Shown here: in pieces, positions 3,920 to 22,446 of the stretch
How positions within the stretch are numbered: position 1 is the stretch's first letter
Layout: every line of letters starts with the position of its first letter
From: a virus
DNA: 22,446 nucleotides
Virus record (IMG/VR): IMGVR_UViG_3300010371_000117
Span: 1 to 22,446 of that record
Reading direction: 5' to 3' (one strand)
Program-made: the position numbers and the translations under genes
The notes under the pieces: model-generated
The model's input: the letters and a program-made list of their open reading frames with translations, nothing else
Told to the model about the DNA's origin: nothing
The model's database searches: none

Positions 3920-3951
3920 AACGTTCGACGGAACAGAAACGGGGCAATCCG

Positions 3952-4464
3952 ATGAGTAACGAACCAAACGCAGGCGAGCAGCAGAAGGCCGGAGGCGAAA
4001 GCCAGGGCCAGGGTGCCGGCGAATCGCAGGGCAAGTCCTTCACGCAGGCCGATGTTGACCGCATCGTCCGGGAGCGGCTGGCCCAGCAGGCGAAGAACCA
4101 GTTCGGCGACTATGACGATCTGAAGACGAAGGCCGAGGGCGCAAAAACGCTTGAGGAACGTCTCGGGACGCTGGAAACCGACCTTGCTTCTGCCCGCACC
4201 GAAGCGCTCCGGGCGAGTGTTGCCGCACGGTTCGGGGTCAGTACGGAGAAGGGGCCGAAAGGCGAACCCTCAGATGCAGACCTGTTTCTCACCGGAACCG
4301 ACGACGCCACTCTCGTCGCCCAGGCACAGCGCTTGGCGGCCCGGGAGGCTGACCGCAAGAAGCAAGGCAACGTCGCACGACGGGAAGGCAACAACCCTGG
4401 CGGCGGCGCCGAAGATCCACTGCGGGAGTTCACCCGCAACCTCTTTAAAAACGACCCTGAATAG
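3952..4464 (+). CDS. Scaffolding protein
   Basis: This 170-residue protein probably guides assembly of the procapsid shell and is then removed. It has the composition expected of scaffolds. A Gly/Gln/Glu-rich disordered N-terminus (about 1-28) is followed by F-T-Q-A-D-V-D-R-I-V-R-E-R-L-A (about 30-44), a hallmark of phage scaffold proteins. A charged coiled coil spans about 45-95, and the C-terminal tail ends in F-T-R-N-L-F-K-N-D-P-E, likely the capsid-binding part. It ends 11 bases before the major capsid gene, the normal partner order. The ribosome site is weak (ACGGGG upstream of the ATG). No protease domain is visible. Confidence 0.9.
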   Translation: MSNEPNAGEQQKAGGESQGQGAGESQGKSFTQADVDRIVRERLAQQAKNQFGDYDDLKTKAEGAKTLEERLGTLETDLASARTEALRASVAARFGVSTEKGPKGEPSDADLFLTGTDDATLVAQAQRLAAREADRKKQGNVARREGNNPGGGAEDPLREFTRNLFKNDPE

Positions 4465-4475
4465 GAGGCCATCAA

Positions 4476-5372
4476 ATGGCCGTTTTGACCACTGGGGATC
4501 TGACGATCCCGAAGCAACTCCTTGACCCGTGGGTCAAGAACATCCACGACGGTTCCGCCATTTCCCAGCTCTCGGGCTCGATCCCGATGAAGTTCGGCAA
4601 GGGCGAGGCGTTCATCTTCGACTCGGGTGAAGCCGAGTACGTCGGTGAGGGCCAGAACAAGTCCTCGAACGACATCACGTCGGACGTGCAGACCACCGAA
4701 CCCTTCAAGTTCCAGAAGACGATCCGTACCACGGATGAAGTCCTCTGGGCCGATGAGGATCATCAGATGGACGTGGTTCGGCAGATCCTTGACCAGATCC
4801 AGCCGGCGCTTTCCCGCGCTCTGGACTTCGGCATCGTGCATGGCATCAACCCGAAGACGGGTGCCGCCGTGGCAGCGATGACGCAGAAGCTGGTTGCTGC
4901 CACGACTTCCATCGAGTACGACGCGACGAAGGCCCCGTATGTGGCTACGGACGCGGCCGTGGCCGCGCTGATGGCCGCCAATGGTGTCCCGAATGGCGTG
5001 GCGCTGGATCCGAAGCTGGCCGCTACGATCTCGGGCACCCGCACCACGGAGGGCGTGAAGCTCTACCCGGACTTCTCGTTCGCGAACGACACGTCCACCT
5101 TCGAGTCGCTGCGTGCCGCGACTTCGCGCACCATCGGCGCCACCGGCGTCGCTGCAACCGCGTCGAACCTGCTGGCCGTCGTGGGCGACTTCTCGGCTGT
5201 CCGTTGGGGCATCCAGAAGACGCTTGGCCTTGAGGTCATCCGGTTCGGTGACCCGGACGGCAACGGCGACCTGAAGCGTAACAACCAGGTTGCGTTCCGC
5301 GCTGAGGTTGTCTACGGCTGGGGCATTGCCGAGCTGGATCGCAACTTCGCCAAGATCGTTGACGCGGTCTGA
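4476..5372 (+). CDS. Major capsid protein (HK97 fold)
   Basis: This 298-residue protein is the shell subunit. It shows the pattern of HK97-fold capsid proteins from actinobacterial siphoviruses: an N-terminal arm beginning A-V-L-T-T-G-D-L-T-I-P, an E-loop region with E-Y-V-G-E-G-Q-N-K, a spine helix with L-S-R-A-L-D-F-G-I-V-H-G (about 110-125), and a C-terminal A-domain with V-V-G-D-F and N-Q-V-A-F-R-A-E-V-V-Y-G-W-G-I. It has no long N-terminal delta domain, consistent with the separate scaffold gene just upstream. A strong TAGGAGG (4463-4469) precedes the ATG, fitting a protein needed in hundreds of copies. The stop TGA shares a base with the ATG of the next small gene. Confidence 0.95.
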   Translation: MAVLTTGDLTIPKQLLDPWVKNIHDGSAISQLSGSIPMKFGKGEAFIFDSGEAEYVGEGQNKSSNDITSDVQTTEPFKFQKTIRTTDEVLWADEDHQMDVVRQILDQIQPALSRALDFGIVHGINPKTGAAVAAMTQKLVAATTSIEYDATKAPYVATDAAVAALMAANGVPNGVALDPKLAATISGTRTTEGVKLYPDFSFANDTSTFESLRAATSRTIGATGVAATASNLLAVVGDFSAVRWGIQKTLGLEVIRFGDPDGNGDLKRNNQVAFRAEVVYGWGIAELDRNFAKIVDAV

Positions 5373-5524
5373 TGCCTCGTTTGCGTAACGAGGTGACTGG
5401 CGCGGTGTTGTCGGTTTCGGATTCCATCGCCGCCCGGCTGGGCGGCGTGTGGGTTCCGGCCGATGACGCCAAGCCGGAGCCGAAGCGGGCCTCGAAGTCC
5501 CGCAAGGCCGACGAGGACAAGTAG
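5372..5524 (+). CDS. Small conserved protein after major capsid
   Basis: This 50-residue protein starts M-P-R-L-R-N-E-V-T-G and ends in a very basic tail K-S-R-K-A-D-E-D-K. The body reads A-V-L-S-V-S-D-S-I-A-A-R-L-G-G-V-W-V-P-A, a compact pattern I have seen in small proteins encoded right after the capsid gene in actinobacterial phages (DUF7302-like, from memory). Its ATG shares one base with the capsid stop (TGATG), so it is probably translated by coupling. The role is not known. A head-associated or connector-associated peptide is possible because of its place. The short length and charged tail argue against an enzyme. Confidence 0.75.
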   Translation: MPRLRNEVTGAVLSVSDSIAARLGGVWVPADDAKPEPKRASKSRKADEDK

Positions 5525-5539
5525 CAAGAGGGGGCGGTC

Positions 5540-6013
5540 ATGCCGACATCAGTGACACCAGTGAAGCTTGCGGTCGCGCTGGGCAAAGCCGCCCCCGAAG
5601 CCGGGTCGGTCACGGAGCAGCAGTGGCAGATGTGGATTGATGACGCGGAAATGCTCATTGATTCACGGCAAGCCGATCTTGGGCTCGATGCCCCGGATCA
5701 GGCGAAGGTTGACTACGTGATCCGCGAAGCCGTCGTCGCGCACATCAAGCGGCCCGACGATGCCACGCAGGTGACGGTCGCGGTCGATGACGGTTCCACG
5801 TCGCGGTCCTACAAGTCTGGCAAGGGTCGGATTGTGATTCTTGATGAGTGGTGGGCGCTGCTCGGGCTGGTTGAGCCCAGCGGGGCTTTCTCGCTGGACA
5901 TGGTTGGTCGCGCTGCGGTGGTGCACCAGCCGTGGTGTGCGGCGATGCTGGGCGCGAACTACTGCTCGTGCGGGGCTGACATTGCGGGCTACCCGATCTA
6001 TGAGTTGGGGTGA
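5540..6013 (+). CDS. Head-to-tail adaptor / connector
   Basis: This 157-residue protein is the likely first connector ring under the portal. It matches the helical connector type (HK97 gp6 / SPP1 gp15-like): a helical bundle with Q-W-Q-M-W-I-D-D-A-E-M-L-I and Y-V-I-R-E-A-V-V-A-H-I-K at about 28-70, then the loop S-T-S-R-S-Y-K-S-G and R-I-V-I-L-D-E-W-W-A-L-L-G. The ATG follows AGAGGGGGCGG (5526-5536). An odd extra C-terminus carries H129, C133, C142 and C144 in H-Q-P-W-C and Y-C-S-C-G-A-D-I, a possible small zinc-binding tail. Position after the capsid gene and before the stopper supports the call. Confidence 0.82.
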   Translation: MPTSVTPVKLAVALGKAAPEAGSVTEQQWQMWIDDAEMLIDSRQADLGLDAPDQAKVDYVIREAVVAHIKRPDDATQVTVAVDDGSTSRSYKSGKGRIVILDEWWALLGLVEPSGAFSLDMVGRAAVVHQPWCAAMLGANYCSCGADIAGYPIYELG

Positions 6014-6019
6014 CCGGTC

Positions 6020-6421
6020 ATGAGCATTGCGGAAGACATCTCCTCGATGCTGCCGGAATTGCAGACAGCGGCAGAATCGCTAATGATCGACCAGTGCGCC
6101 GCAGCCCGCGCTACGGGTGGTTTCGTCACGGATCCGGTGACCGGCGTTGATACCCCGGCTACGGAGCCTGTTTATGCGGGTCGGTGCAAGGTGCAGACGA
6201 CGGTGGCGCAGGCAGCGTCTCCGGAGGCTGGCGAGCACACGTTCACGGTTGCGAACCTGCAGTTGCATTTCCCGGTGTCGGCGCCGTTCCAGACTGGGGA
6301 TCAGGTGACGGTTACCGAGTCGTGGGATCCGCAGAACTTGGGCGTATATCGGCTGGTGGAGTTGGCTCGCGGCACGTTTCGGACGGCGCAGCGCTGGAAT
6401 GTGGAGCGGGTGACCGCATGA
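6020..6421 (+). CDS. Head-tail stopper-like connector (DUF6093-like)
   Basis: This 133-residue protein probably forms the second neck ring that closes the DNA channel. It begins with a helix (M-S-I-A-E-D-I-S-S-M-L-P-E-L). A beta-rich domain follows with Y-A-G-R-C-K-V-Q, H-F-P-V-S-A-P-F-Q-T-G-D-Q-V-T-V and the ending F-R-T-A-Q-R-W-N-V-E-R-V. This layout matches the phage stopper proteins listed as DUF6093 or Gp16-like. It follows the adaptor by 6 bases, and its stop overlaps the start of the next gene (ATGA at 6418), so it is translationally coupled. The exact family name is from memory, while the connector role follows from order and fold style. Confidence 0.72.
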   Translation: MSIAEDISSMLPELQTAAESLMIDQCAAARATGGFVTDPVTGVDTPATEPVYAGRCKVQTTVAQAASPEAGEHTFTVANLQLHFPVSAPFQTGDQVTVTESWDPQNLGVYRLVELARGTFRTAQRWNVERVTA

Positions 6422-8991: not shown

Positions 8992-11895
8992 ATGGCTGAT
9001 CGCCGCGTCAAGGTTTTGTTCGAGGCCCAGATCGGCCAGTACAAGGCCGCTATGAAAGAAGCGGCCAGCTCCACGAAGGATCTTGACGAGAAGATCAAGG
9101 AGACGGGCAATTCCGAGGAGAAGGCGGCCGCCAAGCGGGGCAAGGCGCTAAAGACCCTCGCCCCTGCTGTTACGGCCGCTGGTGTTGCAACCCTGGCCGG
9201 TGTCGCCATTGCCACGAAGGCATTCGCGGACTTCGACAAGCAGATGGCTTCCGTGCAGGCGGCAACGCATGAGACCGCCGACAACATGGATCTGCTGCGT
9301 GAGGCGGCCATCCGGACTGGTGCGGACACGGCGTTCAGTGCTGGCGAGGCGGCGCAGGGCATCGAGGAGATGGCCAAGGCCGGTGTCTCCACGGCCGACA
9401 TCCTGGCAGGCGGTCTTGACGGGTCGCTGGCGTTGGCTGCGGCTGGTGCTATTGGCGTCGGGGATGCCGCCGAGCTTGCGGCGACTGCACTCACCCAGTT
9501 CAAGCTTGAGGGCTCTGACGTCGGCCATGTTGCCGATCTCTTGGCCGCTGGTGCTGGCAAGGCGCAGGGCTCGGTCGGGGATCTCGGGGCGGCACTGAAG
9601 CAGTCGGGTCTCGTGGCGGCCTCTACCGGCTTGACCATTGAGGAGACCACGGGCGGGCTTGCGGCTTTCGCATCTGCGGGCCTTGTGGGTTCGGATGCTG
9701 GCACGTCGTTCAAGTCGATGCTGCAGCGTCTCACTCCGCAGTCCGAGAAGGCTTCCAAGCTTATGGATGAGCTTGGACTGTCGGCCTATGATGCTAACGG
9801 CAACTTTGTGGGCCTGTCCGAGTACGCGGGGATCCTCCAAGAGGGTTTGAAGGACATGACCGTAGAGCAGCGTAATGCCACGATGGCAACGCTGTTCGGT
9901 TCGGATGCCGTGCGTGCCGCGAACGTTCTCTACGAACAGGGCGCCGATGGCATCAACAAGTGGGAAGATGCGGTCAATGACGCCGGATATGCGGCAGAAA
10001 CCGCGGCCATCATGCAGGACAACCTAGCCGGAGATATCGAGAAGCTGGGTGGAGCATTCGATACCGTCTTCATCAAGTCCGGATCCGGCGCGAATGACGT
10101 ACTGCGGGGGCTCGTGCAGGGCCTCGAAGGGGTTGTCGATGTAATCGGCCAGATCCCCACGCCCGTCCTCACTGTGGGAACAATCCTTGCTGGTGTTGCC
10201 GGAGGTGCTGCCGTTCTTGCCGGGGGGCTGGTAACGGTTCTTCCGAAGATCAAGGACACCCGAGAAGCGTTACGGGTCTTGGCCCCGGAGGGTGGGCGCG
10301 TCGACAAGGCGATGCGCGGCCTGGGCAAGGGAGCGCGACTTGCTGCGAGCGGCGTAGCGGCACTTGCGGTGGTTGGCCCGAGCGTGGGTGCGCTGGTTTC
10401 GTCGGGAACGACGGCCGACGCGATGGAACTGGCGGACGCTTTGTTCAAGGTCGGCGCGGGCGGTAATGCAGCATCCGGTGGCCTGAACGATCTTGACGCC
10501 ATGTTCACTTCGGGCGGCGGGTTTGGCAGTTGGTTTGCCGGACTTGACGTAAACGGGATTGACGAAGCGTTCCGCGTCATGGGCAACCCGTCCGTGTCCG
10601 ACAACATCGACAACGTCCTGTCCAAGGTTCTAACGCTCGGCACTCGCGGGTCGTCCAACATCGAGTTTGCCAAGAAGAATTTCGCGGCACTCGATAGCCA
10701 ACTGGTCAGCATGGTTTCCAACGGCGCGACCGAACAGGCGGCGGCTTCCTACGAGGAAATGGCGAAGAAGGCCGAAGCGGCTGGCGTGCCGGTGGAGATG
10801 CTCTCGCAGATCTTCCCCCAGTATAACGGGGCGCTGGCCGATGCTTCCACGAAGTCGCAAGCTGCCGCTTCCGGCACCGACACCCTGGACACCGCGCTCG
10901 CCGAGGTGGGGGTGACGACCGAGGGCGTCGTGGACGACATGGAGACGTTCCTCGACCAGCTGTTCGCTGCTGGTATCGCGACCCGTGACCAACGGGGCGC
11001 GATGCGGGATTACGAGGAGTCCATCGACGCTGTTGCCGACTCCATCAAGGAGAACGGCAAGTCGTTGGACATCACGACGGAGAAGGGCCGTGCCAATCAG
11101 GCTGCGCTCGACAACATCGCTTCCTCGGGGCAGGCCGTGGTCGAGGCAATGGCCGCCAATGGCGCCTCGCAGGAGCAGCTGCAGGGCCATCTGACGGGAA
11201 CCTACGACTCTCTGATCGCCGCAGCCGGGCAGTTCGGGATCGCCGGGGACAAGGCCGACGCCCTGGCCCGCAAGGTGCTGGGGGTGCCGGATAACGTCGA
11301 CGTGAAGACGTGGATGTCTGATCAGGCGAAGAAGACCGCCGAGGCCACGAAGACGGCCGTCGACAACATTCCGAGCCAGAAGAACATCAACGTCACGATC
11401 ACCCGGAACATTCGGGAGCAGTTGGAGCCCCTGCATAACCCGAACCAGTTCTTCAAGAACGGCGGGAACAAGGCGGGCAAGGTGGCGCCGAAGGGGCAGG
11501 GCTGGGGCGTTTTGCGACGTGCGGCCGGCGGTGACCTGGACATGGCGCCGGGTCCGACCGGTGTGGACTCGATGCTGTTCTACGGGGCCAAGGGCGAGCA
11601 TGTCCTGACCGCCCTCGATGTCGCGGCTATGGGCGGCCAGGATGCGGTCTACCGATTCCGGCGCAACCTGCACGGCGCCAAGGGGTATGCGTCGGGAGGC
11701 GAGCTGGGGGCGGCGCGTTACGCGGTCCCCGCCGCCTCGTTGGCAGCACAGTCAGTGGCCGCGTCGGGCGGCGGGACGAATATCGACCTCGGCGGCATCC
11801 GGATCTACGGGGCCACGGACGTAAATGCAGTCCGCCGTGCAGTCCTGGACGAGATCTCGCACAAGTTCCAAACACAGGGGGTGCGGCTTGGCTGA
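8992..11895 (+). CDS. Tail tape measure protein
   Basis: This 967-residue protein spans the tail lumen and sets its length. It is by far the longest frame in the head-tail region and begins with the typical D-R-R-V-K-V-L-F-E-A-Q-I-G-Q-Y-K-A-A-M. A charged coiled coil follows (about 12-55), then the conserved F-D-K-Q-M-A-S-V-Q-A tape-measure core. Hydrophobic segments lie at about 56-76, 392-417 and 448-470 and could insert in the host membrane during DNA entry. The C-terminus has a Gly-rich stretch with the M-A-P-G-P-T-G-V-D-S-M-L region. No lytic transglycosylase or peptidase motif is visible. TAGGAGG precedes the ATG by 5 bases. By the usual rule of roughly 0.15 nm per residue, the tail would be near 145 nm (inference). 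Confidence 0.95.
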   Translation: MADRRVKVLFEAQIGQYKAAMKEAASSTKDLDEKIKETGNSEEKAAAKRGKALKTLAPAVTAAGVATLAGVAIATKAFADFDKQMASVQAATHETADNMDLLREAAIRTGADTAFSAGEAAQGIEEMAKAGVSTADILAGGLDGSLALAAAGAIGVGDAAELAATALTQFKLEGSDVGHVADLLAAGAGKAQGSVGDLGAALKQSGLVAASTGLTIEETTGGLAAFASAGLVGSDAGTSFKSMLQRLTPQSEKASKLMDELGLSAYDANGNFVGLSEYAGILQEGLKDMTVEQRNATMATLFGSDAVRAANVLYEQGADGINKWEDAVNDAGYAAETAAIMQDNLAGDIEKLGGAFDTVFIKSGSGANDVLRGLVQGLEGVVDVIGQIPTPVLTVGTILAGVAGGAAVLAGGLVTVLPKIKDTREALRVLAPEGGRVDKAMRGLGKGARLAASGVAALAVVGPSVGALVSSGTTADAMELADALFKVGAGGNAASGGLNDLDAMFTSGGGFGSWFAGLDVNGIDEAFRVMGNPSVSDNIDNVLSKVLTLGTRGSSNIEFAKKNFAALDSQLVSMVSNGATEQAAASYEEMAKKAEAAGVPVEMLSQIFPQYNGALADASTKSQAAASGTDTLDTALAEVGVTTEGVVDDMETFLDQLFAAGIATRDQRGAMRDYEESIDAVADSIKENGKSLDITTEKGRANQAALDNIASSGQAVVEAMAANGASQEQLQGHLTGTYDSLIAAAGQFGIAGDKADALARKVLGVPDNVDVKTWMSDQAKKTAEATKTAVDNIPSQKNINVTITRNIREQLEPLHNPNQFFKNGGNKAGKVAPKGQGWGVLRRAAGGDLDMAPGPTGVDSMLFYGAKGEHVLTALDVAAMGGQDAVYRFRRNLHGAKGYASGGELGAARYAVPAASLAAQSVAASGGGTNIDLGGIRIYGATDVNAVRRAVLDEISHKFQTQGVRLG

Positions 11896-12643
11896 ACTAA
11901 TCACCGTGGACGGCCGCTACCTCTCTGGCGAGGACAGGTTCGGCGACTGGAAGGTAACCAGCCTCGAAGGGTGGTGGGATACCCCGGACCGCAAGGGCCG
12001 GGACGTCGAAATAGAACTCGCTGATGGCAGCTATGACCTCGAAGAGGCCTATGAGCAGCGGCTCGTCACCATCGAAGGCCGGGTCAAGTCGAAGAACCAC
12101 GACATGCAGCACGAGGCAATGAACTGGCTGAATGGCGCGTTGTCCCGTAGCAGCGGGGAAATCGTTGTTGCGGGGCACGGCCAGACGCAGCACGCCCGCG
12201 TGAAGTTGGCGGGATCGACACGGTGGACCACCGTTACTGATCGGTACGCCAAGTTCCAGATGCGTCTGAAGTGCCCGGATCCCCGCAAGTTCGGTGAGGT
12301 CCGCACATTCGTGGCGCGGGTGAATGCGCCGGCTGGTATCCAGCACTTCGGGAACTATCCGGCGACCCCGTTCATGCGCGTCACGGGCAATGCGCCGGGC
12401 GGGTATCGGATCACGTTGGGCGGGTACAGCGTCCAGGTGAACCGGGAACTGGGGTCCTCTTATCCGCACGAGATCGACTACTGGACGGGCAGGTTGCGGG
12501 TCAACGACAAGTTCGTGACTGGTGACATGTCCTCGGCCGTGTTCGCCCCGGTGGACCCGGGGCAGCGCGACACGCTTTCCATCGTCGCCCTCACGTCTGG
12601 CAGCCCTGTGGTGACCATGACCCTGCCGGACACGTTCATCTGA
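11888..12643 (+). CDS. Distal tail protein
   Basis: This 251-residue protein is the likely distal tail (Dit-like) ring joining the tube to the tip. It starts A-E-L-I-T-V-D-G-R-Y-L-S-G and has W-K-V-T-S-L-E-G-W-W-D-T-P, R-L-V-T-I-E-G-R-V-K-S and Y-A-K-F-Q-M-R-L-K-C-P-D-P-R. The last motif is typical of the N-terminal half of Dit-like proteins. The second half is a beta domain with N-Y-P-A-T-P-F-M-R-V-T-G and the R-E-L-G-S-S-Y-P-H-E-I-D region. The TTG at 11888, six bases after AGGGGG (11876-11881) and overlapping the tape-measure stop, is the best start. The frame is open from 11825, but that part is shadow of the tape measure. Confidence 0.85.
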   Translation: MAELITVDGRYLSGEDRFGDWKVTSLEGWWDTPDRKGRDVEIELADGSYDLEEAYEQRLVTIEGRVKSKNHDMQHEAMNWLNGALSRSSGEIVVAGHGQTQHARVKLAGSTRWTTVTDRYAKFQMRLKCPDPRKFGEVRTFVARVNAPAGIQHFGNYPATPFMRVTGNAPGGYRITLGGYSVQVNRELGSSYPHEIDYWTGRLRVNDKFVTGDMSSAVFAPVDPGQRDTLSIVALTSGSPVVTMTLPDTFI

Positions 12644-12656
12644 TTGAGGAGGCTTG

Positions 12657-13739
12657 ATGGCCTACAGGGTCTACGCAGTCTCCGCGAACGTGTGGAATGA
12701 TCCGGTGCCGGTGAAGGCCGCGTCGTTCACGTGGGCGCGGTCGAAGAACCATGGGGAGCAGGGGCAGGCAACGTTCCAGCTCGGAGACCCGGTGATAGCC
12801 GAGGCCCTGGGGCTGTATGACCTGTATCCGGGGGACAAGTACCTGGTTCTCGACTGGGACGGCACGGCGCTCTACGCGGGCCGGATCTTCTCGGCCGACT
12901 ACAAGCGGGATGACCAGGTACTCACCGTCTCGCATAGTGATGTGTGGGCCGAGTGGGAGCGTCGGCTTGTCTTGACGGACAGGACCCCGGATGTCGCGAA
13001 GTCGAAGGTCACCTACTCGGGTGTCACGCTGGCGACGATCGCCAAGCGTGTTGTCCAGGCGGGGATCACCGGGCCGGCGGGCGAGAACTATTCGATGCCG
13101 ATCCGGTTCGAGGACGACGTCGCAGGCTCCTCCTCGAGGACCTATTACGGGTACGACATGATGAAGGTTTCCGAAGCTCTCACCGACATCATGGAATCGC
13201 AGACGGATCTCGACATCGACTTCTTCCCCCGCTGGGCCGACGGCGCCCTCGAGTGGCAGATGCGCGTCGGGGACCTCTCCTGGAACGAGCTGGAATACGA
13301 CCTCTCCGCGCCGGGTTCCGGGGCGAAGGGCCTATGGGTCAAGACGGACGCGACGCAACGTGTGAACCGGGTCTACGGGATCGGCGAGGGGACCGAGGTC
13401 GATACGCTGGTCCGGGTGTCGACCTCGGGAAACATCAAGCTGAACATGGCCTCCGAAACCGCGGAGTCCTACAAGGACGTCAAGGTCGGTTCGCAGCTCC
13501 AGGATCGGGCGCAAGAATCCATTGTTGCGAACAACGGGACCACCCGGCAGGCCGGGTTCGACGTACTCGCCGACGGCGCGCACAAGGTCTCCGAGTTCCG
13601 ACCCGGCATCCCCGTCTGGTGGAACGTCCGCAATGACCCCTACATCCTCGACGGGAAACGGGCCTGGGAGCTCATCAAGTACTCCGGCTCGCTCGATGAG
13701 TGGGTGACGCTGGAGTTCCAGCAGAAGGAGGGCGGCTGA
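12657..13739 (+). CDS. Tail-tip hub-like minor tail protein
   Basis: This 360-residue protein is probably the tail hub (Tal or gp27-like), found in actinobacterial phages as a ReqiPepy6 Gp37-like protein. The order of motifs fits: an N-terminal strand domain (Y-R-V-Y-A-V, F-T-W-A-R-S, Q-A-T-F-Q-L-G-D-P), then L-Y-A-G-R-I-F, V-S-H-S-D-V-W-A-E-W-E-R-R, and a C-terminal region with R-V-N-R-V-Y-G-I-G-E-G. It ends at W-V-T-L-E-F-Q-Q-K-E-G-G. No peptidase motif is seen. GAGGAGG (12646-12652) fits the ATG at 12657 better than the TTG at 12654. The stop overlaps the next ATG (TGATG). Confidence 0.82.
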   Translation: MAYRVYAVSANVWNDPVPVKAASFTWARSKNHGEQGQATFQLGDPVIAEALGLYDLYPGDKYLVLDWDGTALYAGRIFSADYKRDDQVLTVSHSDVWAEWERRLVLTDRTPDVAKSKVTYSGVTLATIAKRVVQAGITGPAGENYSMPIRFEDDVAGSSSRTYYGYDMMKVSEALTDIMESQTDLDIDFFPRWADGALEWQMRVGDLSWNELEYDLSAPGSGAKGLWVKTDATQRVNRVYGIGEGTEVDTLVRVSTSGNIKLNMASETAESYKDVKVGSQLQDRAQESIVANNGTTRQAGFDVLADGAHKVSEFRPGIPVWWNVRNDPYILDGKRAWELIKYSGSLDEWVTLEFQQKEGG

Positions 13740-14476
13740 TGGGAAAGCTGAATGACCTTACCGCGGGGAACATGCGGGACATCCTCCGCCGATTGTCCCG
13801 CCTAGAGAACGCATCCCCGCTCTCGTCCTCCTCCATTGGGCGGGGGCGGATGCGGTTCTACGACGGTTCCGTGCTTCTAATCGAGAATGGGGCCTTGCAG
13901 GTCACGGGCACGGCGACGATCTCAGGCGTGCTTGATGTATCGGGCAGAACAAATCTCAAGGGCCAAGTTTCCGTAACGGGTCCAATGACGATCTCCGGAA
14001 CGACAACGATTACCGGAAACACGTCGATAACTGGCGAGCTGGTGGTCACGGGCCCCACCACGCTGGACGGCATCACGGACATCGGTGGCGACACTACGAT
14101 CACTGGCGATCTTGATGTGAACGGGCCAGCGACAGTCAACGGAAAAATGGACATCAAGGGTCCCACCACCATCTCGGGGAAGCTCGACGTGACCGGCGCC
14201 ATGGCCACCAAGGGCACGCTCTCAGTTGAGGGTGTCACGACGCTAAAGAACGACCTGAACGTCACGACGGGCGGGAAGATCAAAGCCGGAAACCTGGAGA
14301 TCGAACCGGCAAACGGTGGTCAGATCAACTTCTCTGGCGGGTCCATCGCCGTGGGCTCGTTTGGGATGCTGATTACACACACTAATGGGGTGTCGCTATC
14401 TTCGGGAACCAAGCCTAGCGGCACACAACCCAATTGCTACATGGACATTTCAGGCAAGGTCTACCGCATCGAATGA
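13739..14476 (+). CDS. Hexapeptide-repeat minor tail protein
   Basis: This 245-residue protein starts with a helical segment, M-R-D-I-L-R-R-L-S-R-L-E-N, probably for trimer formation or attachment to the hub. Residues 57-170 are 19 consecutive six-residue units with Gly at the first position and I, V or L at the fifth in all but one (G-A-M-A-T-K). A degenerate unit follows. This spacing is what a beta-helix or bactofilin-like stacked-strand rod would need. The C-terminus (about 180-245) is a small beta domain ending C-Y-M-D-I-S-G-K-V-Y-R-I-E. Its ATG is in a TGATG with the hub stop. A shaft at the tail tip is the likely role. The next gene is convergent and abuts it without any gap. Confidence 0.8.
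   Translation: MGKLNDLTAGNMRDILRRLSRLENASPLSSSSIGRGRMRFYDGSVLLIENGALQVTGTATISGVLDVSGRTNLKGQVSVTGPMTISGTTTITGNTSITGELVVTGPTTLDGITDIGGDTTITGDLDVNGPATVNGKMDIKGPTTISGKLDVTGAMATKGTLSVEGVTTLKNDLNVTTGGKIKAGNLEIEPANGGQINFSGGSIAVGSFGMLITHTNGVSLSSGTKPSGTQPNCYMDISGKVYRIE
13907..14266 (+). repeat. Coding 18-bp-period repeat (hexapeptide units)
   Basis: Nineteen exact six-residue units plus one degenerate unit encode G-x-x-x-[IVL]-x, for example G-P-T-T-I-S, G-K-L-D-V-T, G-D-T-T-I-T and G-D-L-D-V-N. Units rich in Thr alternate irregularly with units containing L-D-V. The DNA is diverged, so the repeat is kept by protein structure rather than recent duplication. Confidence 0.85.
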
Positions 14477-14893
14477 CTAGCAGAGCGCCGATCTTGCCGA
14501 GTCTAGGATGATCATCTGTAGCGTGTAGTAGGGCATGCCGCCCTTCTCGATCATTGCATTGCGTTGAGTCATATTCGGGTACCCGCCCATGTCCATGCCA
14601 TGCTCAGCGGTTTCCTTGCAGTAGTTATGGCCGGACTTGACGAGCTGCGCGTCCGTTGGCCGCTTGATGTCGGGCCATTCAGGGGCGCCATCCACAAGGT
14701 CAAGGAACTTCTGCTCGGCGGCGGCGCGAGAAGGTACTGCAGCCATTTTGCGGGCTTGCGGGGCAGTTGCGGCCCGAGCGGATGACGCGGCGCTAGCGGT
14801 GACACTTGCGGGCTCTTGGGCCGCTTCCTGTGGCGCTGAACAACCAGCGAGCGCAATGGCAATTAGGAGTGCCGGGGCGGTAAGCTTCTTCAT
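14477..14893 (-). CDS. DUF732-like lipoprotein (moron candidate)
   Basis: This is the only reverse-strand gene in the window (138 residues). It has a lipoprotein signal: M-K-K, a hydrophobic stretch to residue 17 and the lipobox L15-A16-G17-C18. It should be exported and lipid-anchored on the host membrane. An Ala-rich linker (about 20-55) leads to a C-terminal domain with Q-K-F-L-D-L-V-D, D-A-Q-L-V-K-S-G-H-N-Y-C92 and a final C138, the shape of DUF732 (PF05305) proteins of actinobacteria. The two Cys may form a disulphide. The start is set by GGAAGG (14901-14906 on this strand), 7 bases from the ATG at 14893; longer frames have no support. It ends directly against the convergent tail gene with no room for its own terminator. 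A host-altering gene carried in the late region is likely; superinfection exclusion is one option (inference). Confidence 0.85.
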   Translation of the reverse strand: MKKLTAPALLIAIALAGCSAPQEAAQEPASVTASAASSARAATAPQARKMAAVPSRAAAEQKFLDLVDGAPEWPDIKRPTDAQLVKSGHNYCKETAEHGMDMGGYPNMTQRNAMIEKGGMPYYTLQMIILDSARSALC

Positions 14894-14919
14894 ATCGAAT
14901 CCTTCCCGATTCGGTCGCC

Positions 14920-14953
14920 GCCCCGGATGTTCACAGCATCGCGGGGCTTTTAT
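14920..14953 (+). terminator. Rho-independent terminator candidate
   Basis: GCCCCG (14920-14925) and GATG (14926-14929) pair with CATC (14937-14940) and CGGGGC (14942-14947). This is a 10-bp stem with one bulged G and a 7-base loop, followed by TTTTAT. On the + strand it would stop transcripts that have run antisense through the lipoprotein gene. On the reverse strand the hairpin lies in the leader of the lipoprotein gene, and the A-rich complement of TTTTAT falls near where its promoter would be. Confidence 0.6.
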
Positions 14954-14985
14954 GTGTCTCCGTAGTTTACACCCGAGGGGGACAA

Positions 14986-15141
14986 ATGGAAGACGACGAT
15001 AAGTTCCTACACGAGCAGACCATCGTGTCACTGCGGACCCAACTCGCAGAGGCGACATTCCTGCTCGCCCAATCTCAGGCGCAAACCGCACTCTTGCGGC
15101 AGATGATTCAGCAGGCCACCGAGCCCGCCACCAAAGACTAG
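14986..15141 (+). CDS. Small helical protein, function unknown
   Basis: This 51-residue protein begins M-E-D-D-D-K-F-L-H-E. It is almost entirely helical in appearance, with Q-T-I-V-S-L-R-T-Q-L-A-E-A-T-F-L-L-A and A-L-L-R-Q-M-I-Q-Q giving a likely short coiled coil. GAGGGGG (14975-14981) is four bases before the ATG, a strong ribosome site, which supports a real gene. It sits alone between two terminator-like hairpins, so it is either a separate transcription unit with a promoter in about 14954-14975 or it depends on readthrough. I do not recognise a family. A chaperone or trimerisation partner for the following spike is possible but not shown. Confidence 0.65.
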   Translation: MEDDDKFLHEQTIVSLRTQLAEATFLLAQSQAQTALLRQMIQQATEPATKD

Positions 15142-15155
15142 ACCTCGAACTTTCC

Positions 15156-15178
15156 AGCCCTTTGACCGGGGCTTTTTT
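15156..15178 (+). terminator. Rho-independent terminator
   Basis: AGCCC (15156-15160) pairs with GGGCT (15169-15173) around an 8-base loop and runs directly into a T6 tract (15173-15178). It follows the stop of the 51-residue gene by 14 bases. It would cut off or attenuate transcription before the spike gene, whose ribosome site starts at 15191, so the spike may need its own promoter or antitermination. Confidence 0.7.
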
Positions 15179-15203
15179 CATGCCCTCTTGAAAGGTGGCG
15201 TCC

Positions 15204-17240
15204 ATGCCTGTTGTGACCGGAAACCTGCGTGACATCACGAATGTTGCGATGGTCAGCGAGCAGCCCCAGATCGTGTTCACGCTGAACCAGACGAACATGG
15301 CAGGCGGCGTGGTCTACCCGAGCGAGCCGTCAGTGGTGACGCCCGCCTCGGATGGGTCGTTCACCGTGGATCTCGCGGCCACGCAGGACATGGTCGATAC
15401 CGGCTGGTACACGCTCAAGCTGCAGTGGTTGGGGCTGTCGACCGGGGCGGCGCTGATGGATTTCCCGGAGTGGCAGATCACCGTTCCCCGTTCCGGTGGC
15501 GTGATCTCGTCCCTGCTCGCGAAGCCAGGCACGAACCAGCGGATCGTGTGGGAGTCGACGACCCCGCCGTTGATGCCTCGCCCGTTCATGCTGTGGCTCG
15601 AGCAGGATCCGCTGCAGCCGGGCGAGAAGGACAAGGCCCGCCTGTATGAGTGGCGGCGCGGTGGCTGGTCCGAGCACGGCAACGGTTCCTGGGCGTACAT
15701 CGCGGATCTGAAGGGCGCGCCAGGTTACAGCGCCCTGGGTACCGGGCCGCAGCAGGACACCGTGGCCGCATGGATGGAGGGCGCAGCTGGCGCCAATGCC
15801 GTGTCACTGGCGTTGGCGGCCGTCATCGCGGAGAACATCCCCACCATCGACGTCCACTCGCTCGGCGCCGTCGGCGACGGTGTCGCCGATGACACCCTCC
15901 CGCTGCAGACCGCGTTCAACGTCGCGAAGACCTTCGACGGGGTCCACGTGACCCTCCGGGCCGGGAAGACCTACAAGACCACGGACGAACTGCACATCTA
16001 CCGCAACACGTCCGTCGAGGGCAACGGCGGCACGATCAAGCGCCACCACAACGGCTACCTGGTCATGAACGGTGACCGTGGGGCTTCCTACCCCGGTTAC
16101 ACCGGGCACGGGAACCTGCAGCTGCGCAACCTCGTCTTCGACCACAACGCGACGGCGTTCAACGACGGATACGGGTCCATTTTCACCCTGGGGCATGCGG
16201 AGAAGGTCCTGTTCGACCGGGTGCGGTTCCTGAACGCTAATTCCCATGCCGTGGACTGCAGCGCGAATAAGCAGGTCCGGTTCCGTGACTGCGAGTTCCT
16301 GGGCTACCGAAACACGGACGGCAACGACTACGTCGAGGCCATCCAGATCGACTATGCGGTCCAATCGGGCTTCCCGGCATTCGGTGCCTACGACGGGACA
16401 CCGTGCCGCGACATCCTCGTGGACGGTTGCCGGTTCGGCGCATCCGATGACCTGCCGGCACACCCGCGGTTCATCGGTTCCCACGGTGCCGCGGTCGGGT
16501 CGGCGGCCGAGAAGATCGTCATCACGAACAACACCTTCACCGACCCGACGAACCTTGCCGTTCGCCCGTTCAACTGGAACGACGTCGACGTGCACAACAA
16601 CTACATGGCCGGCAACGCCGGGTTCTTCCTGGCGAACACCCCGGACGGCGACCAGAACTGGGGCCTGCGGGTAACCCACAACACGGCCATCACGACGGGG
16701 GCCGTAGGAATCCGGTTCCTCGGCAAGGAGACAGGAACGTTCCAGAACTGCATCATCTCCCAGAACCGCCTCTTCGGCGGGGACTCGGGGGCGTGGGGCG
16801 GGATCCAGGTCGCCTACTTCCGGTCGATGGCGGTGACGGAGAACATGATCCGCCAGTACATGGGCGCCGGCATCACGTGCGTGGAAGGCACCGCAGACGT
16901 GGACCTGCTGGTGTCCGGGAACTCGATCCACTCGGTGGGGCAGAACGGTATCCAGCTGGCCGGGATCACAGACGTACGCGTGGTGAACAACGAGACGTGG
17001 TCCGTTGGCCGGGAAACGGCGGGCGTGTACGCGCATATTCGCCTGACGACGGCAATCACGAACGCCACGGTCTCGGGCAACCAGGCCCGGGCCTCGGGCA
17101 CTTCAACCGCCCTGCACGGCTTCTACGCGGGGTCGTCGTGCACGGGCGTCGTCCGGATCGGGAACAACTGGCGCGGCTCGGCAACCACGGCCGTCGCTGA
17201 TGGTTCCACGGGCGGATCGAATGCCGCCGAACTCGTCTAA
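15204..17240 (+). CDS. Tail spike with pectate-lyase-like beta-helix
   Basis: This 678-residue protein is probably a receptor-binding or glycan-degrading spike. Residues 1-110 form a beta domain (P-V-V-T-G-N-L-R-D-I, with I-V-F-T-L and G-S-F-T-V-D-L) that likely anchors it to the tail. Residues 130-210 are a linker with G-A-P-G-Y-S. The long right-handed beta-helix begins at about 215 with I-D-V-H-S-L-G-A-V-G-D-G-V-A-D-D, the signature opening of the Pectate_lyase_3 class. It runs to about 660 with repeated short strands such as I-V-I-T-N-N-T-F and V-R-V-V-N-N-E-T. Catalytic acids cannot be assigned by eye. AAAGGTGG (15191-15198) favours the ATG at 15204 over the GTG at 15195. It is flanked by a terminator and a perfect palindrome. 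Confidence 0.9.
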   Translation: MPVVTGNLRDITNVAMVSEQPQIVFTLNQTNMAGGVVYPSEPSVVTPASDGSFTVDLAATQDMVDTGWYTLKLQWLGLSTGAALMDFPEWQITVPRSGGVISSLLAKPGTNQRIVWESTTPPLMPRPFMLWLEQDPLQPGEKDKARLYEWRRGGWSEHGNGSWAYIADLKGAPGYSALGTGPQQDTVAAWMEGAAGANAVSLALAAVIAENIPTIDVHSLGAVGDGVADDTLPLQTAFNVAKTFDGVHVTLRAGKTYKTTDELHIYRNTSVEGNGGTIKRHHNGYLVMNGDRGASYPGYTGHGNLQLRNLVFDHNATAFNDGYGSIFTLGHAEKVLFDRVRFLNANSHAVDCSANKQVRFRDCEFLGYRNTDGNDYVEAIQIDYAVQSGFPAFGAYDGTPCRDILVDGCRFGASDDLPAHPRFIGSHGAAVGSAAEKIVITNNTFTDPTNLAVRPFNWNDVDVHNNYMAGNAGFFLANTPDGDQNWGLRVTHNTAITTGAVGIRFLGKETGTFQNCIISQNRLFGGDSGAWGGIQVAYFRSMAVTENMIRQYMGAGITCVEGTADVDLLVSGNSIHSVGQNGIQLAGITDVRVVNNETWSVGRETAGVYAHIRLTTAITNATVSGNQARASGTSTALHGFYAGSSCTGVVRIGNNWRGSATTAVADGSTGGSNAAELV

Positions 17241-17247
17241 CCACCCT

Positions 17248-17280
17248 CGGGAGTCCCAGCCGAAGCGGCTGGGACTCCCG
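17248..17280 (+). terminator. Perfect 15-bp palindrome after the spike gene
   Basis: CGGGAGTCCCAGCCG (17248-17262) pairs perfectly with CGGCTGGGACTCCCG (17266-17280) around the three-base loop AAG, 8 bases after the spike stop. No T tract follows, so it would act as a strong stem without the usual tail, a form often seen at gene ends in high-GC bacteria. It ends 11 bases before the ribosome site of the next fibre gene. An RNA stop or processing site is most likely. Confidence 0.65.
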
Positions 17281-17302
17281 TCGAATCCGCCAGGAGGCAC
17301 AC

Positions 17303-19750
17303 ATGGCATTCCCCAGCAACATTCCCACCGTGGAGATCCGCGGCCGCCTGCTGTCGCCAGGCATGGCTGCAGCGGACGCATCACGCGAGAAGACTGCCCG
17401 GCGGTCCCTGCTGCGCGTCGTGTTCACCCCGTCGGTGCAGAAGGTCACTGCGCCGGGTGCGGACCCGTCCCCGGTGACGTTCTACCATGCCGGGATGCCG
17501 GCGCCGGTGGAAGGCATCACGAGCACGGACGGATACCTGTGCACCCCGGACCCGCAGAACGACGAACTGGCGCTCTTCCCGGGCGTGCGGCTCATCGCAA
17601 CGGATGCCGAGCAGTACTCGGTTGTGGACTGGACCTGGACGGTGAAGGTCACCTCCTTGGACCGGAAGGCCGTCTACGAGACGTACAGCATCGCCGTTCC
17701 GCAGGCCGCCGCAGTGAATGGGCTCGACCTCACAAATCTGGCCCCGGTCCCTTCCACCCCCGGCTATGGCATCCCGCAGGCCGAGGCTGCCGCCGCCGCC
17801 GCGGCTCAGGACGCGCAGGCAGCCGGCGCCGCCGCGGTCACTGCCGGGGAACGTGCAACCTCTGCGGCGGCGAGCGCCGCGAAGGCCGAACAAGTCACGG
17901 TCACCACTGGCGAAGTCGTCGGCGATGACCTGATCCTCACCAAGGGCGACGGTTCCACCAAGAATGCGGGGAACGTGCGAGGCCCGGTAGGCCCAGCCGG
18001 CCCCAACACCATCCCGACCGATGAAGCCGTTGCACAGGTGCTCACCTCAAGCGGGGCCAGCGCGCAAGCGGCCGCGCTCGACCTGATCGACTCCAAGACG
18101 CAGGGCGTCTACGCGCCAATTGCGGAAAGCACCGTCAGGATTGGTGCAGAGGCCCTGGCTTCCCAGCCGGCCAGCTTTGACATCGGTTCCAGCGGCACCG
18201 TAGTGGCTCTCGGAACGAACGCGATGGCGAACATGGTGGACGTGACCAACGGCATCGCGATTGGCACGAACGCCCAGGGCGAAGGGACGCATAGCCGAGA
18301 GAATATCGCCATAGGCGACTCGGCGTTGCAGCACGTCCAGGCCACCAAGAGCAACTACGACCAGAACGCCCAGGAGGGTACCCGGAATATCGGGATCGGT
18401 GGGAACGCGCTTCGGTTCAACAAGGCGGGCCAGCGGCATATCGCCATCGGCCGCAATGCGGGGCACTGCATCGAGGATGGGATGGGTCTTGTTGCCATCG
18501 GCGTCGGAGCGAACGGCGGCGCAGCGCCGATTGGCCTCTCGGGGGAAGTGGAGAACTGGGCGAAGTGGGGGACGCCTGGGCAGCGCATCAGGGCAACCGC
18601 CGTAGGGTTGGAGGCTTCAGCCCGGTCGAGCGCACCCAACAGTGTTGCAGTCGGCGGCGATGCCCTGCACGAGAACAAGAAGTCGGACAACAATGTGGGG
18701 GTCGGGGCACGCGCCCTGTACACGCTGGACGTGGACACCGGGTACAACGGCGGAACGTACGTCGTCATCGGGAAGACGGGCACCTACTCCCAGTCGGGGA
18801 ACGTTCTGACCGTGACTGTCGCGGCGCATGGCCTAGCGGTCGGTGACATCGCGTACCTGCGAATGCCAGACGGCGGCAGCGCGACGTTTGCCAACGACGA
18901 GGCACTCGCCTATGTGGCCACGGTTCCCGACGCCAACACATTCACCATCACCCATCCGTTGTCGATCACCTCGACTGGCACGTTCGAGCTGAACGGCAAG
19001 GAAACTGCCGTCCAGAAACCGCGGAACGAAAACAACGTCGCCGTCGGTACGTCCGCGGGCGGGGCGCTAAAGACGTCTTCCAGCAGCACGGCGATTGGGG
19101 CCGCATCCCTGGCTGCTGCCACGGCTTCCGACAGGGTGACGGCTCTCGGATATCAGGCATTGGGTCAGATCCCGAGCGGGTCAAACAGTGTTGGTTGCGG
19201 CTACTACGCGGCCGGCAGCATGACGGGCAACGCCAACGCCGTCACCGCTGTCGGGGCATCGGCGCTTCGGAACAAGATCGACAACACCCCCCTGACTGAG
19301 GGGTGGTCGAACATCATCGGTATCGGGTTCGACTCCCGCGTATCTGGGGAGAATCAGGCACAGATCGGCAACTCCTCGGTTACGACCTACGTCTACGGGA
19401 CGGTGCAGAACCGCTCGGACGCCCGCGACAAGGCCGACATCCGGGATACGGAACTGGGCCTCGGGTTCATAGAGAAGCTGCGTCCCGTCGACTACAAGTG
19501 GGACATGCGCGAGGACTACGACGGGGCCGAGCGTGACGGCAGTAAGAAGCGCACCCGCTACCACCATGGGTTGATCGCCCAGGAAATTCAGCAGGTCATC
19601 GAGGAAACGGGGGCCGACTTCGGCGGCTTCCAAGACCACTCGGTGAACGGCGGATCCGACGTCCTGTCAATCGGCTACGACGAGCTGATCGCCCCGCTCA
19701 TCAAAGCCGTGCAGGAGCTCTCTGCACGCGTCCGGCAGCTCGAAAGCTAA
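17303..19750 (+). CDS. Tail fibre with YadA-like head and S74 chaperone domain
   Basis: This 815-residue trimeric adhesion protein has five parts. Residues 1-135 are a beta anchor domain (V-E-I-R-G-R-L, V-V-F-T-P-S). Residues 157-198 are an Ala-rich coiled coil, and 227-234 a short collagen-like G-P-V-G-P-A-G-P. About 290-700 is a head of YadA-type repeats (I-A-I-G-T-N-A, I-A-I-G-D-S-A-L, I-G-I-G-G-N-A-L, S-V-A-V-G-G-D-A-L, T-A-I-G-A-A-S-L), interrupted by a beta insert at about 490-560. The C-terminus (705-815) is an intramolecular chaperone of peptidase family S74: S705-D-A-R-D-K710 carries the Ser-Lys pair, then H-G-L-I-A-Q-E-I and a final coil. By the family mechanism it should cleave before S705 after trimer folding. 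AGGAGG lies six bases before the ATG. Confidence 0.93.
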   Translation: MAFPSNIPTVEIRGRLLSPGMAAADASREKTARRSLLRVVFTPSVQKVTAPGADPSPVTFYHAGMPAPVEGITSTDGYLCTPDPQNDELALFPGVRLIATDAEQYSVVDWTWTVKVTSLDRKAVYETYSIAVPQAAAVNGLDLTNLAPVPSTPGYGIPQAEAAAAAAAQDAQAAGAAAVTAGERATSAAASAAKAEQVTVTTGEVVGDDLILTKGDGSTKNAGNVRGPVGPAGPNTIPTDEAVAQVLTSSGASAQAAALDLIDSKTQGVYAPIAESTVRIGAEALASQPASFDIGSSGTVVALGTNAMANMVDVTNGIAIGTNAQGEGTHSRENIAIGDSALQHVQATKSNYDQNAQEGTRNIGIGGNALRFNKAGQRHIAIGRNAGHCIEDGMGLVAIGVGANGGAAPIGLSGEVENWAKWGTPGQRIRATAVGLEASARSSAPNSVAVGGDALHENKKSDNNVGVGARALYTLDVDTGYNGGTYVVIGKTGTYSQSGNVLTVTVAAHGLAVGDIAYLRMPDGGSATFANDEALAYVATVPDANTFTITHPLSITSTGTFELNGKETAVQKPRNENNVAVGTSAGGALKTSSSSTAIGAASLAAATASDRVTALGYQALGQIPSGSNSVGCGYYAAGSMTGNANAVTAVGASALRNKIDNTPLTEGWSNIIGIGFDSRVSGENQAQIGNSSVTTYVYGTVQNRSDARDKADIRDTELGLGFIEKLRPVDYKWDMREDYDGAERDGSKKRTRYHHGLIAQEIQQVIEETGADFGGFQDHSVNGGSDVLSIGYDELIAPLIKAVQELSARVRQLES

Positions 19751-21010: not shown

Positions 21011-22446
21011 GTGGCAACAGCACCCACACGCGCCTATACAGCCACGCCAACGGCAGGCTGGGCATCAACGGCAACCCCGAAAACGTCGCCCACGTTCGAC
21101 GTGCAGGCAGGGGATCTCATCGTCCTCATCGCGTTTAGCGAGGACTTCACTTCCCCGGTCGGCGCCCCCTCATGGACGGGCAGTGGGACGTGGACGCTGC
21201 GGCAGTCCGTGGTGGTGTCGGCGTACTGTACCGCCTACCTGTACACGTGCCTTGTCGGGGCTGCGGCTACGGGGCGGACGATCAGCATGTCCCGTACTGG
21301 TGGCGGCGGGCAATTCAGCTTCTACGCCACGGGTTGGCGGAACCACGGCGGGCTGGGCGTCACGGGGAAGGCCAACGTCGCCAGTGGTGCGCCCGCCCTC
21401 GCGCTGGCCACCTCGGCAAATTCGGCTGTCATCGTCGGCAACTCCGACTGGACGGCCAACGGGTCATCATGGTCATGGCGCACGGTCAACGGCGCGCAGA
21501 TCATCGAGACGTCACGTGGCGGGACCGCGGGCAACACGTACATGTGCTACTCCGGGTATTCCCCGGACACTGGGCCGGCGGGGACCATCACCTATGGGAT
21601 GCTCACCCCATCCACCCAGAAATACTCCATCGTCGGGGTGGAGGTATTGGGAACCGCCGCCGCCGAGCCGCCCGCCTATTCGTGGACGGCGAACCTTTCC
21701 GGGGCTGGCACGCTCACCGGCAACCCGAGGCCATCATTCGGCTGGGTCGCGGCACTCAACGGTGGCGGGCAAGTTTCCGCCACCATGGTACCGGCGCTCG
21801 CATGGTCGGCAACGCTCGACGGTATCGGGCAACTCACGGCAATCGTGGCACCCAGGCTGACGTGGGATGCCGAACTTGCCGGGGATGGGCTGCTCGACGC
21901 CACGGCAACACCGCACTTCGAGTGGACAGCCAACCTCGACGGGTCCGGCACGCTCGCCGTACAGGCCACCACGGAACGCTCGTGGACGGCCCCATTCGGC
22001 GGCACCGGCACACTGACCACCGCCGCCACCATTGCGTTTGGCTGGGAAGCACTGGCGGGCGCAGAAGGCACACTAACGGCCAACACCGCGCCCGCCTTTC
22101 AATGGGTCGCGCCACTCGACGGCGAAGGAACACTCACCGCCGACATCACCCGAGGCCGGGCATGGTATCTGATCCTCACCGGGTCCGGGAACCTAGCCGC
22201 GACCCACCGACCGCACTTCACATGGACGGCCAACCTGACAGGGGAAGGCACGCTATCGGATGAACCACAGGAGCCCATTGACATGAATCAACCATCACCG
22301 GATTGGAACCTGGTTCTCTGCAAGTGGGCCGGGGTCAAGATGGACGGCACCCCCTGCACCGGGCGGCTCAAGTTCAGCTACAACGGGACCGGGAAGTTCC
22401 TGCTGGACGACGACCCCGAAACCCCGCTGTCCATCTACACGGCGGA
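21011..22446 (+). CDS. Repeat-bearing minor tail protein (partial, runs off window)
   Basis: At least 478 residues are encoded before the window ends without a stop. Residues 1-217 are a beta-sandwich, lectin-like domain (F-D-V-Q-A-G-D-L-I-V-L-I, G-S-G-T-W-T-L-R-Q-S, the W-R-N-H-G-G turn and the final Y-S-I-V-G-V-E-V-L-G), a kind I recall from tail proteins of actinobacterial phages. Residues 225-422 are ten tandem 20-residue repeats. From 430 a new beta domain starts (W-N-L-V-L-C-K-W-A-G-V, T-G-R-L-K-F-S-Y), resembling the anchor domains of the two fibre genes. GTG 21011 follows GGGGGTGG by six bases. Two other + frames are also open here but have shadow-like composition. An adhesion role is likely. 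Confidence 0.82.
   Translation, partial: MATAPTRAYTATPTAGWASTATPKTSPTFDVQAGDLIVLIAFSEDFTSPVGAPSWTGSGTWTLRQSVVVSAYCTAYLYTCLVGAAATGRTISMSRTGGGGQFSFYATGWRNHGGLGVTGKANVASGAPALALATSANSAVIVGNSDWTANGSSWSWRTVNGAQIIETSRGGTAGNTYMCYSGYSPDTGPAGTITYGMLTPSTQKYSIVGVEVLGTAAAEPPAYSWTANLSGAGTLTGNPRPSFGWVAALNGGGQVSATMVPALAWSATLDGIGQLTAIVAPRLTWDAELAGDGLLDATATPHFEWTANLDGSGTLAVQATTERSWTAPFGGTGTLTTAATIAFGWEALAGAEGTLTANTAPAFQWVAPLDGEGTLTADITRGRAWYLILTGSGNLAATHRPHFTWTANLTGEGTLSDEPQEPIDMNQPSPDWNLVLCKWAGVKMDGTPCTGRLKFSYNGTGKFLLDDDPETPLSIYTA
21683..22276 (+). repeat. Ten tandem 20-residue Trp/Gly repeats (60-bp period)
   Basis: Each unit begins with Trp and is exactly 20 codons long. The pattern is W-x-A-x-L-x-G-x-G at positions 1-9, L at 11, and often P-x-F near 17-19. 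Nine full units cover 21683-22222; the tenth (22223-22276) is 18 residues long and breaks into a different sequence. Units 1, 5 and 10 all begin W-T-A-N-L. DNA identity between units is partial, so the array is old. Confidence 0.9.
22269..22285 (+). promoter_or_regulatory. Internal ribosome site and in-frame ATG
   Basis: AGGAG (22269-22273) stands nine bases before an ATG at 22283 that is in frame with the repeat-bearing protein, exactly where the repeat array stops and the new domain begins. It could yield a short form made of the C-terminal domains alone, or be the start of a once separate gene now fused. Use in vivo is not shown. Confidence 0.35.

What the first reader, a model, noticed from the sequence alone, without database searches (positions are those of the whole stretch)
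21683..22276. Exact 20-residue Trp/Gly repeat array
Nine complete units without a single insertion or deletion, plus a tenth of 18 residues, imply a strict structural repeat such as a beta-solenoid or a string of small beta-hairpins with a stacked Trp column. I do not recognise a named repeat family with this pattern. Copy number could vary between phages and set fibre length.
Basis: seen in the sequence. Interest (0 to 1): 0.55.

Follow-up and report, generated by a model that had tools for sequence, protein, structure and literature searches.

The report
Twenty-residue repeat in phage tail protein
The end of a tail protein from an Arthrobacter-phage-like virus is built from ten strict 20-residue repeats that most likely stack into a rigid beta-structured rod; the same unnamed repeat, usually without the tryptophan, occurs in many phage tail proteins with 4 to 38 copies, so phages may adjust a tail part by adding or dropping whole units.

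Summary
Residues 221-420 of the open-ended gene at 21011 are ten 20-residue units without indels: Trp 10/10, second Gly 10/10, first Gly, Ala and two Leu 8-9/10. No shuffle comes near this. It is not a window oddity. The core A-x-L-x-G-x-G-[TA]-L-x-A at a 20-residue period recurs in about 80 distinct carriers, nearly all IMG/VR contigs, with up to 38 units. Several carriers match PHROG minor-tail families. The Trp column is a local variant (about 1% of family units). No Pfam, NCBIfam or PHROG repeat model defines the unit. Pfam DUF2807 is the nearest match, but reversed arrays match it about as well, so that is shared periodicity, not shown homology. Copy number changes in whole units: 10 against 9 in the closest relative, and exactly 40 residues between two otherwise near-identical proteins. 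Strict polar/apolar alternation and AlphaFold2 (array pLDDT about 74) favour a beta-solenoid with one rung per unit. AlphaFold2 over-predicts solenoids for repeats (PMC11795689), so the fold and the spacer role remain inferences.

The parts
21011..22444 (+). Gene for the repeat-bearing protein; GTG start, no stop before the record ends (incomplete 3' end)
   Evidence: whole record is 22446 bases
21011..21670 (+). N-terminal domain, residues 1-220; no relative found; the closest relative (L004) carries a different sequence here
   Evidence: no match; DNA similarity to L005 (same contig as L004) breaks between 21017 and 21665
21671..22270 (+). Ten tandem units of exactly 20 residues, P-x-F-x-W-x-A-x-L-x-G-x-G-T-L-x-A-x-x-x
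22271..22444 (+). Start of a C-terminal segment (58 residues, cut by the record end); 57 of 58 residues identical in L004
   Evidence: no phage match
20664..20993 (+). Small gene directly upstream, also upstream of the array gene in L004 (PHROG 240, 'head protein', 5e-10)
15195..19750 (+). Two tail-spike genes of the same tail module (PHROG 2234; PHROG 4636 with a Peptidase_S74 chaperone end)

Best explanation
The array is the shaft (spacer) of a phage tail-tip or minor tail protein. Each 20-residue unit forms one rung of a stacked beta structure, most likely a flat parallel beta-solenoid. Odd-numbered residues (P1, F3, W5, A7, L9, G11, G13, L15, A17) form the core, the G-x-G is one bend, the stretch around the Pro is the other, and Ser/Thr/polar residues face out. 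In this phage a Trp at position 5 of every rung, where the family usually has Gly or Ala, would make a Trp ladder in the core. Gain or loss of whole units changes rod length without disturbing the ends, which are exchanged separately. SHOWN: the repeat, its spacing, the alternation, the wide phage family, whole-unit copy-number differences, an exchanged N-terminal domain, the tail-module setting. INFERRED: solenoid rather than an intertwined trimer, buried Trp, spacer role. Not tested: any effect on adsorption or host range.
For: Strict periodicity. Alternation: DEKRHNQ 5/100 odd against 32/100 even positions, S/T 3/100 against 37/100, LIVMFWY 43/100 against 9/100. The same alternation shows across 84 carriers. 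AlphaFold2 gives one strand of about 15 residues plus a short loop per unit in most of the window array (pLDDT 66-81 per ten-residue block) and in L123 with 19 motifs (mean 70). The models align to parallel beta-helices: 3.8 A over 205 residues, Z 13.8, and the 9NA tailspike, 4.0 A over 276, Z 14.7. Whole-unit indels: window/L004 20 residues; L030/L088 40 residues with near-identical flanks; L029/L136 and L035/L125 hold 20- and 40-residue gaps among others. Purifying selection between window and L004 arrays: dN 0.061, dS 0.270. Tail setting and minor-tail PHROG matches of carriers.
Against: AlphaFold2 builds confident false beta-solenoids for random perfect repeats, including a 20-residue unit repeated ten times (PMC11795689, passages read). 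Array confidence here is only moderate, pTM is 0.54, and no Foldseek match in the PDB is significant (best E 0.079; 4.6). The preference for even over odd spacing changes is weak (50 against 36 events; 28 against 14 carriers). No oligomer could be modelled. Two rungs place Arg at core positions (units 6 and 9). The gene is cut, so what sits at the far end is unknown.
Confidence: 0.55

Rival explanations
1. The units form an intertwined homotrimeric shaft (triple beta-spiral or triple beta-helix type), in which each unit is a strand pair around the G-x-G turn and the apolar face packs on the threefold axis.
For: Viral fibres are commonly trimeric, and beta-spirals pair antiparallel strands through a Gly/Pro turn (PMC7565637, passages read). 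The G-x-G and P positions fit two turns, and one apolar face per strand fits a shared core.
Against: The period is 20, whereas the adenovirus repeat is about 15 (recalled). Monomer predictions give one long strand per unit and align to single-chain parallel helices, but a monomer prediction cannot exclude this.
Confidence: 0.25
2. A row of small beta-hairpins with an exposed aromatic column that binds cell-wall sugars, working like choline-binding repeats (also about 20 residues with Trp; recalled).
For: Invariant Trp in 10/10 units. Tail-module location.
Against: Trp lies on the apolar face together with Phe, Leu and Ala. About 99% of family units lack Trp there. No cell-wall-binding repeat model matched the array even at E 5.
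Confidence: 0.12
3. A flexible, largely disordered linker of low complexity between domains.
For: Rich in Gly, Ala, Ser and Thr; three tblastn queries from other carriers found nothing in named phages, probably because the low-complexity filter masks them.
Against: Strict spacing and strict alternation under purifying selection; an invariant Trp.
Confidence: 0.06

Closest known systems
Pfam DUF2807 (PF10988, head GIN domain; solved matches 3jx8, 3lyc, 3ljy, 3pet, 4opw)
   Same: G-x-G at roughly 20-residue spacing; best Pfam match of the array. The array profile finds 3jx8 at 4.8e-6, and the model aligns to 3jx8 at 3.4 A over 177 residues, Z 11.9.
   Different: The window array is below the cut-off (13.4 against 24.2 bits). 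Reversed arrays match about as well or better, so common descent is not shown.
PHROG minor tail protein families 416, 356, 346 and 9784
   Same: Carrier L061 holds this repeat type and matches PHROG 416 over residues 1-377 (1.1e-64).
   Different: These models describe whole proteins; the window array matches only PHROG 28284 and 31951, both of unknown function (9.7e-5 and 2.5e-4). The window N- and C-terminal parts do not match them.
Single-chain parallel beta-helix tailspikes (9NA, Sf6, P22)
   Same: Predicted topology, tail location.
   Different: Those are irregular enzyme or receptor domains with larger rungs (recalled); here the rung is uniform, 20 residues, and variable in number.
Mycobacterium prophage prophiGD43A-5 gp100 and Microbacterium phage Magritte gp27
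   Same: Same G-x-G-[TA]-L repeat of about 20 residues; gp100 lies between the minor tail genes and lysin A.
   Different: Both annotated 'hypothetical protein'; no Trp column; Magritte spacing is less regular.
Orsay virus delta beta-bracelet
   Same: Repeat-built viral fibre shaft of beta-strands (PMC7565637, passages read).
   Different: Eight residues per repeat (five-residue strand, three-residue loop), pentamer, different consensus.

Membership tests
DUF2807 (PF10988) | Score above the curated gathering cut-off | tested here: not met
   Window array 13.4 bits against 24.2. One carrier, L098, passes with 25.5; 8 of 67 carriers match at E 1e-3.
DUF2807 (PF10988) | Sequence similarity beyond a shared G-x-G period | tested here: not met
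   Reversed arrays match: L123 6.1e-12 reversed against 8.1e-4 forward; window 0.012 against 0.066; L098 2.4e-4 against 7.9e-6. The two shuffled arrays gave none.
DUF2807 (PF10988) | Stacked beta-helix fold | tested here: inconclusive
   Model aligns to 3jx8, Z 11.9, 3.4 A over 177, but model confidence is moderate and AlphaFold2 has a known bias here.
Single-chain parallel beta-solenoid | Rungs of near-constant length with in/out alternation | tested here: met
Single-chain parallel beta-solenoid | Parallel rung-on-rung pairing within one chain | tested here: inconclusive
   AlphaFold2 models and structural alignments agree; not experimental
Choline/cell-wall-binding repeats (recalled comparator) | Match to a Pfam cell-wall-binding repeat model | tested here: not met
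   Only DUF2807 listed for the window array at E up to 5
Triple beta-spiral / triple beta-helix fibres | Intertwined homotrimer | not testable with these tools
   Only monomers can be predicted here
PHROG minor tail families (416 and others) | Profile match of the protein | tested here: not met
   Window protein matches none of them; other carriers do

The most novel reading that the evidence does not exclude
A large, unnamed, virus-enriched family of 20-residue beta-solenoid repeats (core A-x-L-x-G-x-G-[TA]-L-x-A) serves phages as a modular rod. Whole rungs are gained or lost by recombination to set the length of a tail part, while end domains and the core ladder residue (Gly/Ala or Trp) are exchanged independently.
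Probability: 0.4. Interest if true: 0.6.

Novelty: new variant of a known kind. Interest (0 to 1): 0.42.

Why it matters
A single repeat model would help annotate 'hypothetical' tail proteins such as the two in named phages. Because natural pairs differ by whole units, the question whether unit number sets the length of a tail part can be asked directly by electron microscopy.

Tried and rejected
DUF2807 membership looked attractive and was rejected as shown homology after the reversed-sequence control.

Unit palindromy as evidence for a two-sided coil: the best centre is the middle of G-x-G (0.872), but with the columns fixed by the search pattern removed it is not the best centre, so it was dropped.

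Even-number indels as evidence for strands: only weak (two-sided binomial p 0.16 for events, 0.04 for carriers).

A Trp-specific pattern found only the contig already known as L004 in virus contigs and nothing in the genome-contig collection. The 4-copy generic pattern gave 19 genome stretches. Read by eye, only 2 (L136, L145) look like this repeat; the rest are simple tandem repeats or out of frame. Of the 120 virus stretches held, 33 have the 4-copy pattern; the two collections were not scanned with the same pattern or completeness.

tblastn with three other arrays found nothing in named phages, probably because of the low-complexity filter. PhageMin_Tail was found in 13 of 46 carrier records (46 chosen of the carriers then held), many of them fragments. 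Foldseek against virus models gave no E below 0.001. Ten literature searches found no description of this repeat in the listings seen; two searches were aimed at DUF2807 and at the AlphaFold2 bias. Open-licence papers only.

Dropped before counts: one search started from all loci then held; 94 carriers with at least 4 motifs, 89 after removing duplicates, 85 with adjacent-unit identity below 0.75. One search also dropped the simple-repeat loci L132, L138 and L144, leaving 84. These include the window itself (L003) and two annotated phages (L001, L002); a few are close relatives of one another, and some of the shortest may be unrelated Gly/Ala-rich repeats. The search pattern fixes the two Gly, the residue classes at the two Leu sites and that at the Thr site, so those columns are not independent evidence. 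The family figure for Trp includes the window's own units.

Full report
OBSERVATION. The gene at 21011 (GTG, 478 residues, open at the record end) holds ten consecutive units of exactly 20 residues at 21671-22270. Invariant or nearly so are W5 and G13 (10/10), A7, G11 and L15 (9/10) and L9 (8/10). Lag-20 identity is 0.389, against at most 0.207 for any lag in 2,000 shuffles. Units are only 0.39 identical in protein and 0.50 in DNA, and Tandem Repeats Finder sees nothing, so the array is old and kept by selection on spacing and a few residues, not a fresh DNA duplication.

SETTING. The window is a whole IMG/VR record of 22,446 bases. It starts where Arthrobacter phage Pitbull starts and is collinear with it to about 11.3 kb (blastn pieces 72-84% identical; terminase 88.6% in protein). 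No blastn match to Pitbull was found beyond that point, so the tail-tip region differs. Upstream of the array gene lie a tape measure gene, a minor tail gene, two tail-spike genes and a holin-like gene (PF23778, above cut-off). The array gene is therefore at the end of the tail module.

CLOSEST RELATIVE. One virus contig, IMGVR_UViG_3300010371_000124 (L004/L005), carries the same array at 78% identity in the best segment with nine units instead of ten. Its third unit matches window unit 4 best (0.78) and none of its units matches window unit 3 best, so one whole unit is lost or gained in frame. The residues before the array are a different sequence: DNA similarity stops between 21017 and 21665. 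The residues after it are 57 of 58 identical. Between the aligned units dN is 0.061 and dS 0.270.

FAMILY. With at least four motifs and after removing duplicates and simple repeats, 84 carriers remain (the window and two annotated phages included). In them 547 of 670 spacings are exactly 20, 33 of 84 carriers have no other spacing, and copy numbers run from 4 to 38. Columns not fixed by the search pattern show the same design: Ala at 59% and 52% two places outside the two Leu, Ser/Thr enriched at every second position. Trp in the window's Trp column is at 1.1% of the 753 family units, the window's own units included. Of 67 carriers scanned, the commonest PHROG matches are minor tail families (356 in 5; 416, 346 and 9784 in 4 each). 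Of the same 67, no Pfam model except DUF2807 (8 of 67), Gly_rich_2 and Laminin_G_3 (4 each) matches more than one, and NCBIfam has none that matches more than one.

COPY NUMBER. L030 and L088 are complete frames of 387 and 347 residues that differ by one gap of exactly 40 residues, two units, inside the array; apart from it the aligned sequences printed look identical. L029/L136 and L035/L125 contain 20- and 40-residue gaps among gaps of other sizes. Not all related pairs differ: the prophage proteins L002, L015 and L061 have the same length. Short-read assembly can collapse near-identical units, so L030/L088 needs long reads; the window/L004 case is safer because its units are diverged.

FOLD. 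In the window array polar, Ser or Thr residues occupy 8 of 100 odd and 69 of 100 even positions, and LIVMFWY 43 and 9. This argues, independently of any model, for extended strands with one apolar face, and puts Trp on that face. AlphaFold2 predicts one long strand per unit in most of the window array and in L123 with 19 motifs. VIA alignments are mostly to parallel beta-helices (the fold label is recalled for most entries), though Foldseek itself finds nothing significant in the PDB. PMC11795689 (passages read) shows AlphaFold2 giving confident false solenoids for random perfect repeats, 20-residue units included. These arrays are not perfect repeats, but the models must be read as weak support.

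DUF2807. The array's best Pfam match is DUF2807 and the array profile finds its solved members. Reversed arrays match DUF2807 comparably (L123 6.1e-12 reversed, 8.1e-4 forward), and the two shuffled ones do not. The match thus reflects G-x-G at a 20-residue period; it is an analogy, not membership.

CONCLUSION. Ordinary in role (a repeat-built part of a phage tail protein), unusual in regularity, and representative of a broad repeat family for which no curated model was found. The most likely mechanism is a rigid rod whose length is set by the number of rungs; the length and spacer parts are inference.

Noticed in passing
window 22324-22446 and L004/L005 end: The window and contig IMGVR_UViG_3300010371_000124 end at the same base and share an identical 123-base suffix; this suggests an assembly fork or a variable stretch just downstream.
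   Followed up: partly
window 14480-15298, minus strand: A minus-strand frame inside the tail cluster contains a lipoprotein-like signal (LPAM_1 at E 0.08, below cut-off); possibly a cargo gene.
   Followed up: partly
window 13700-14476: A second repeat protein, of Thr/Gly-rich short units, with a sub-threshold Bactofilin match (3.1e-5) and tail-fibre PHROG matches.
   Followed up: no
window 17303-19750: Tail-spike with a Peptidase_S74 end and internal A-x-G-type repeats that resemble trimeric autotransporter heads (resemblance recalled; Pfam found nothing in the N-terminal 399 residues).
   Followed up: partly
L052, frame 10659-14687: A relative in which Trp replaces the conserved Leu just before the G-x-G, so aromatic ladders may have arisen in more than one column.
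   Followed up: no
L067, frame 3343-6087: A relative with a dominant 18-residue period (21 of 28 spacings) in place of 20.
   Followed up: no
window 21671-22270, unit positions 14-16: Many units show T-x-T on the outward face, as in ice-binding solenoids (recalled); probably coincidence.
   Followed up: no
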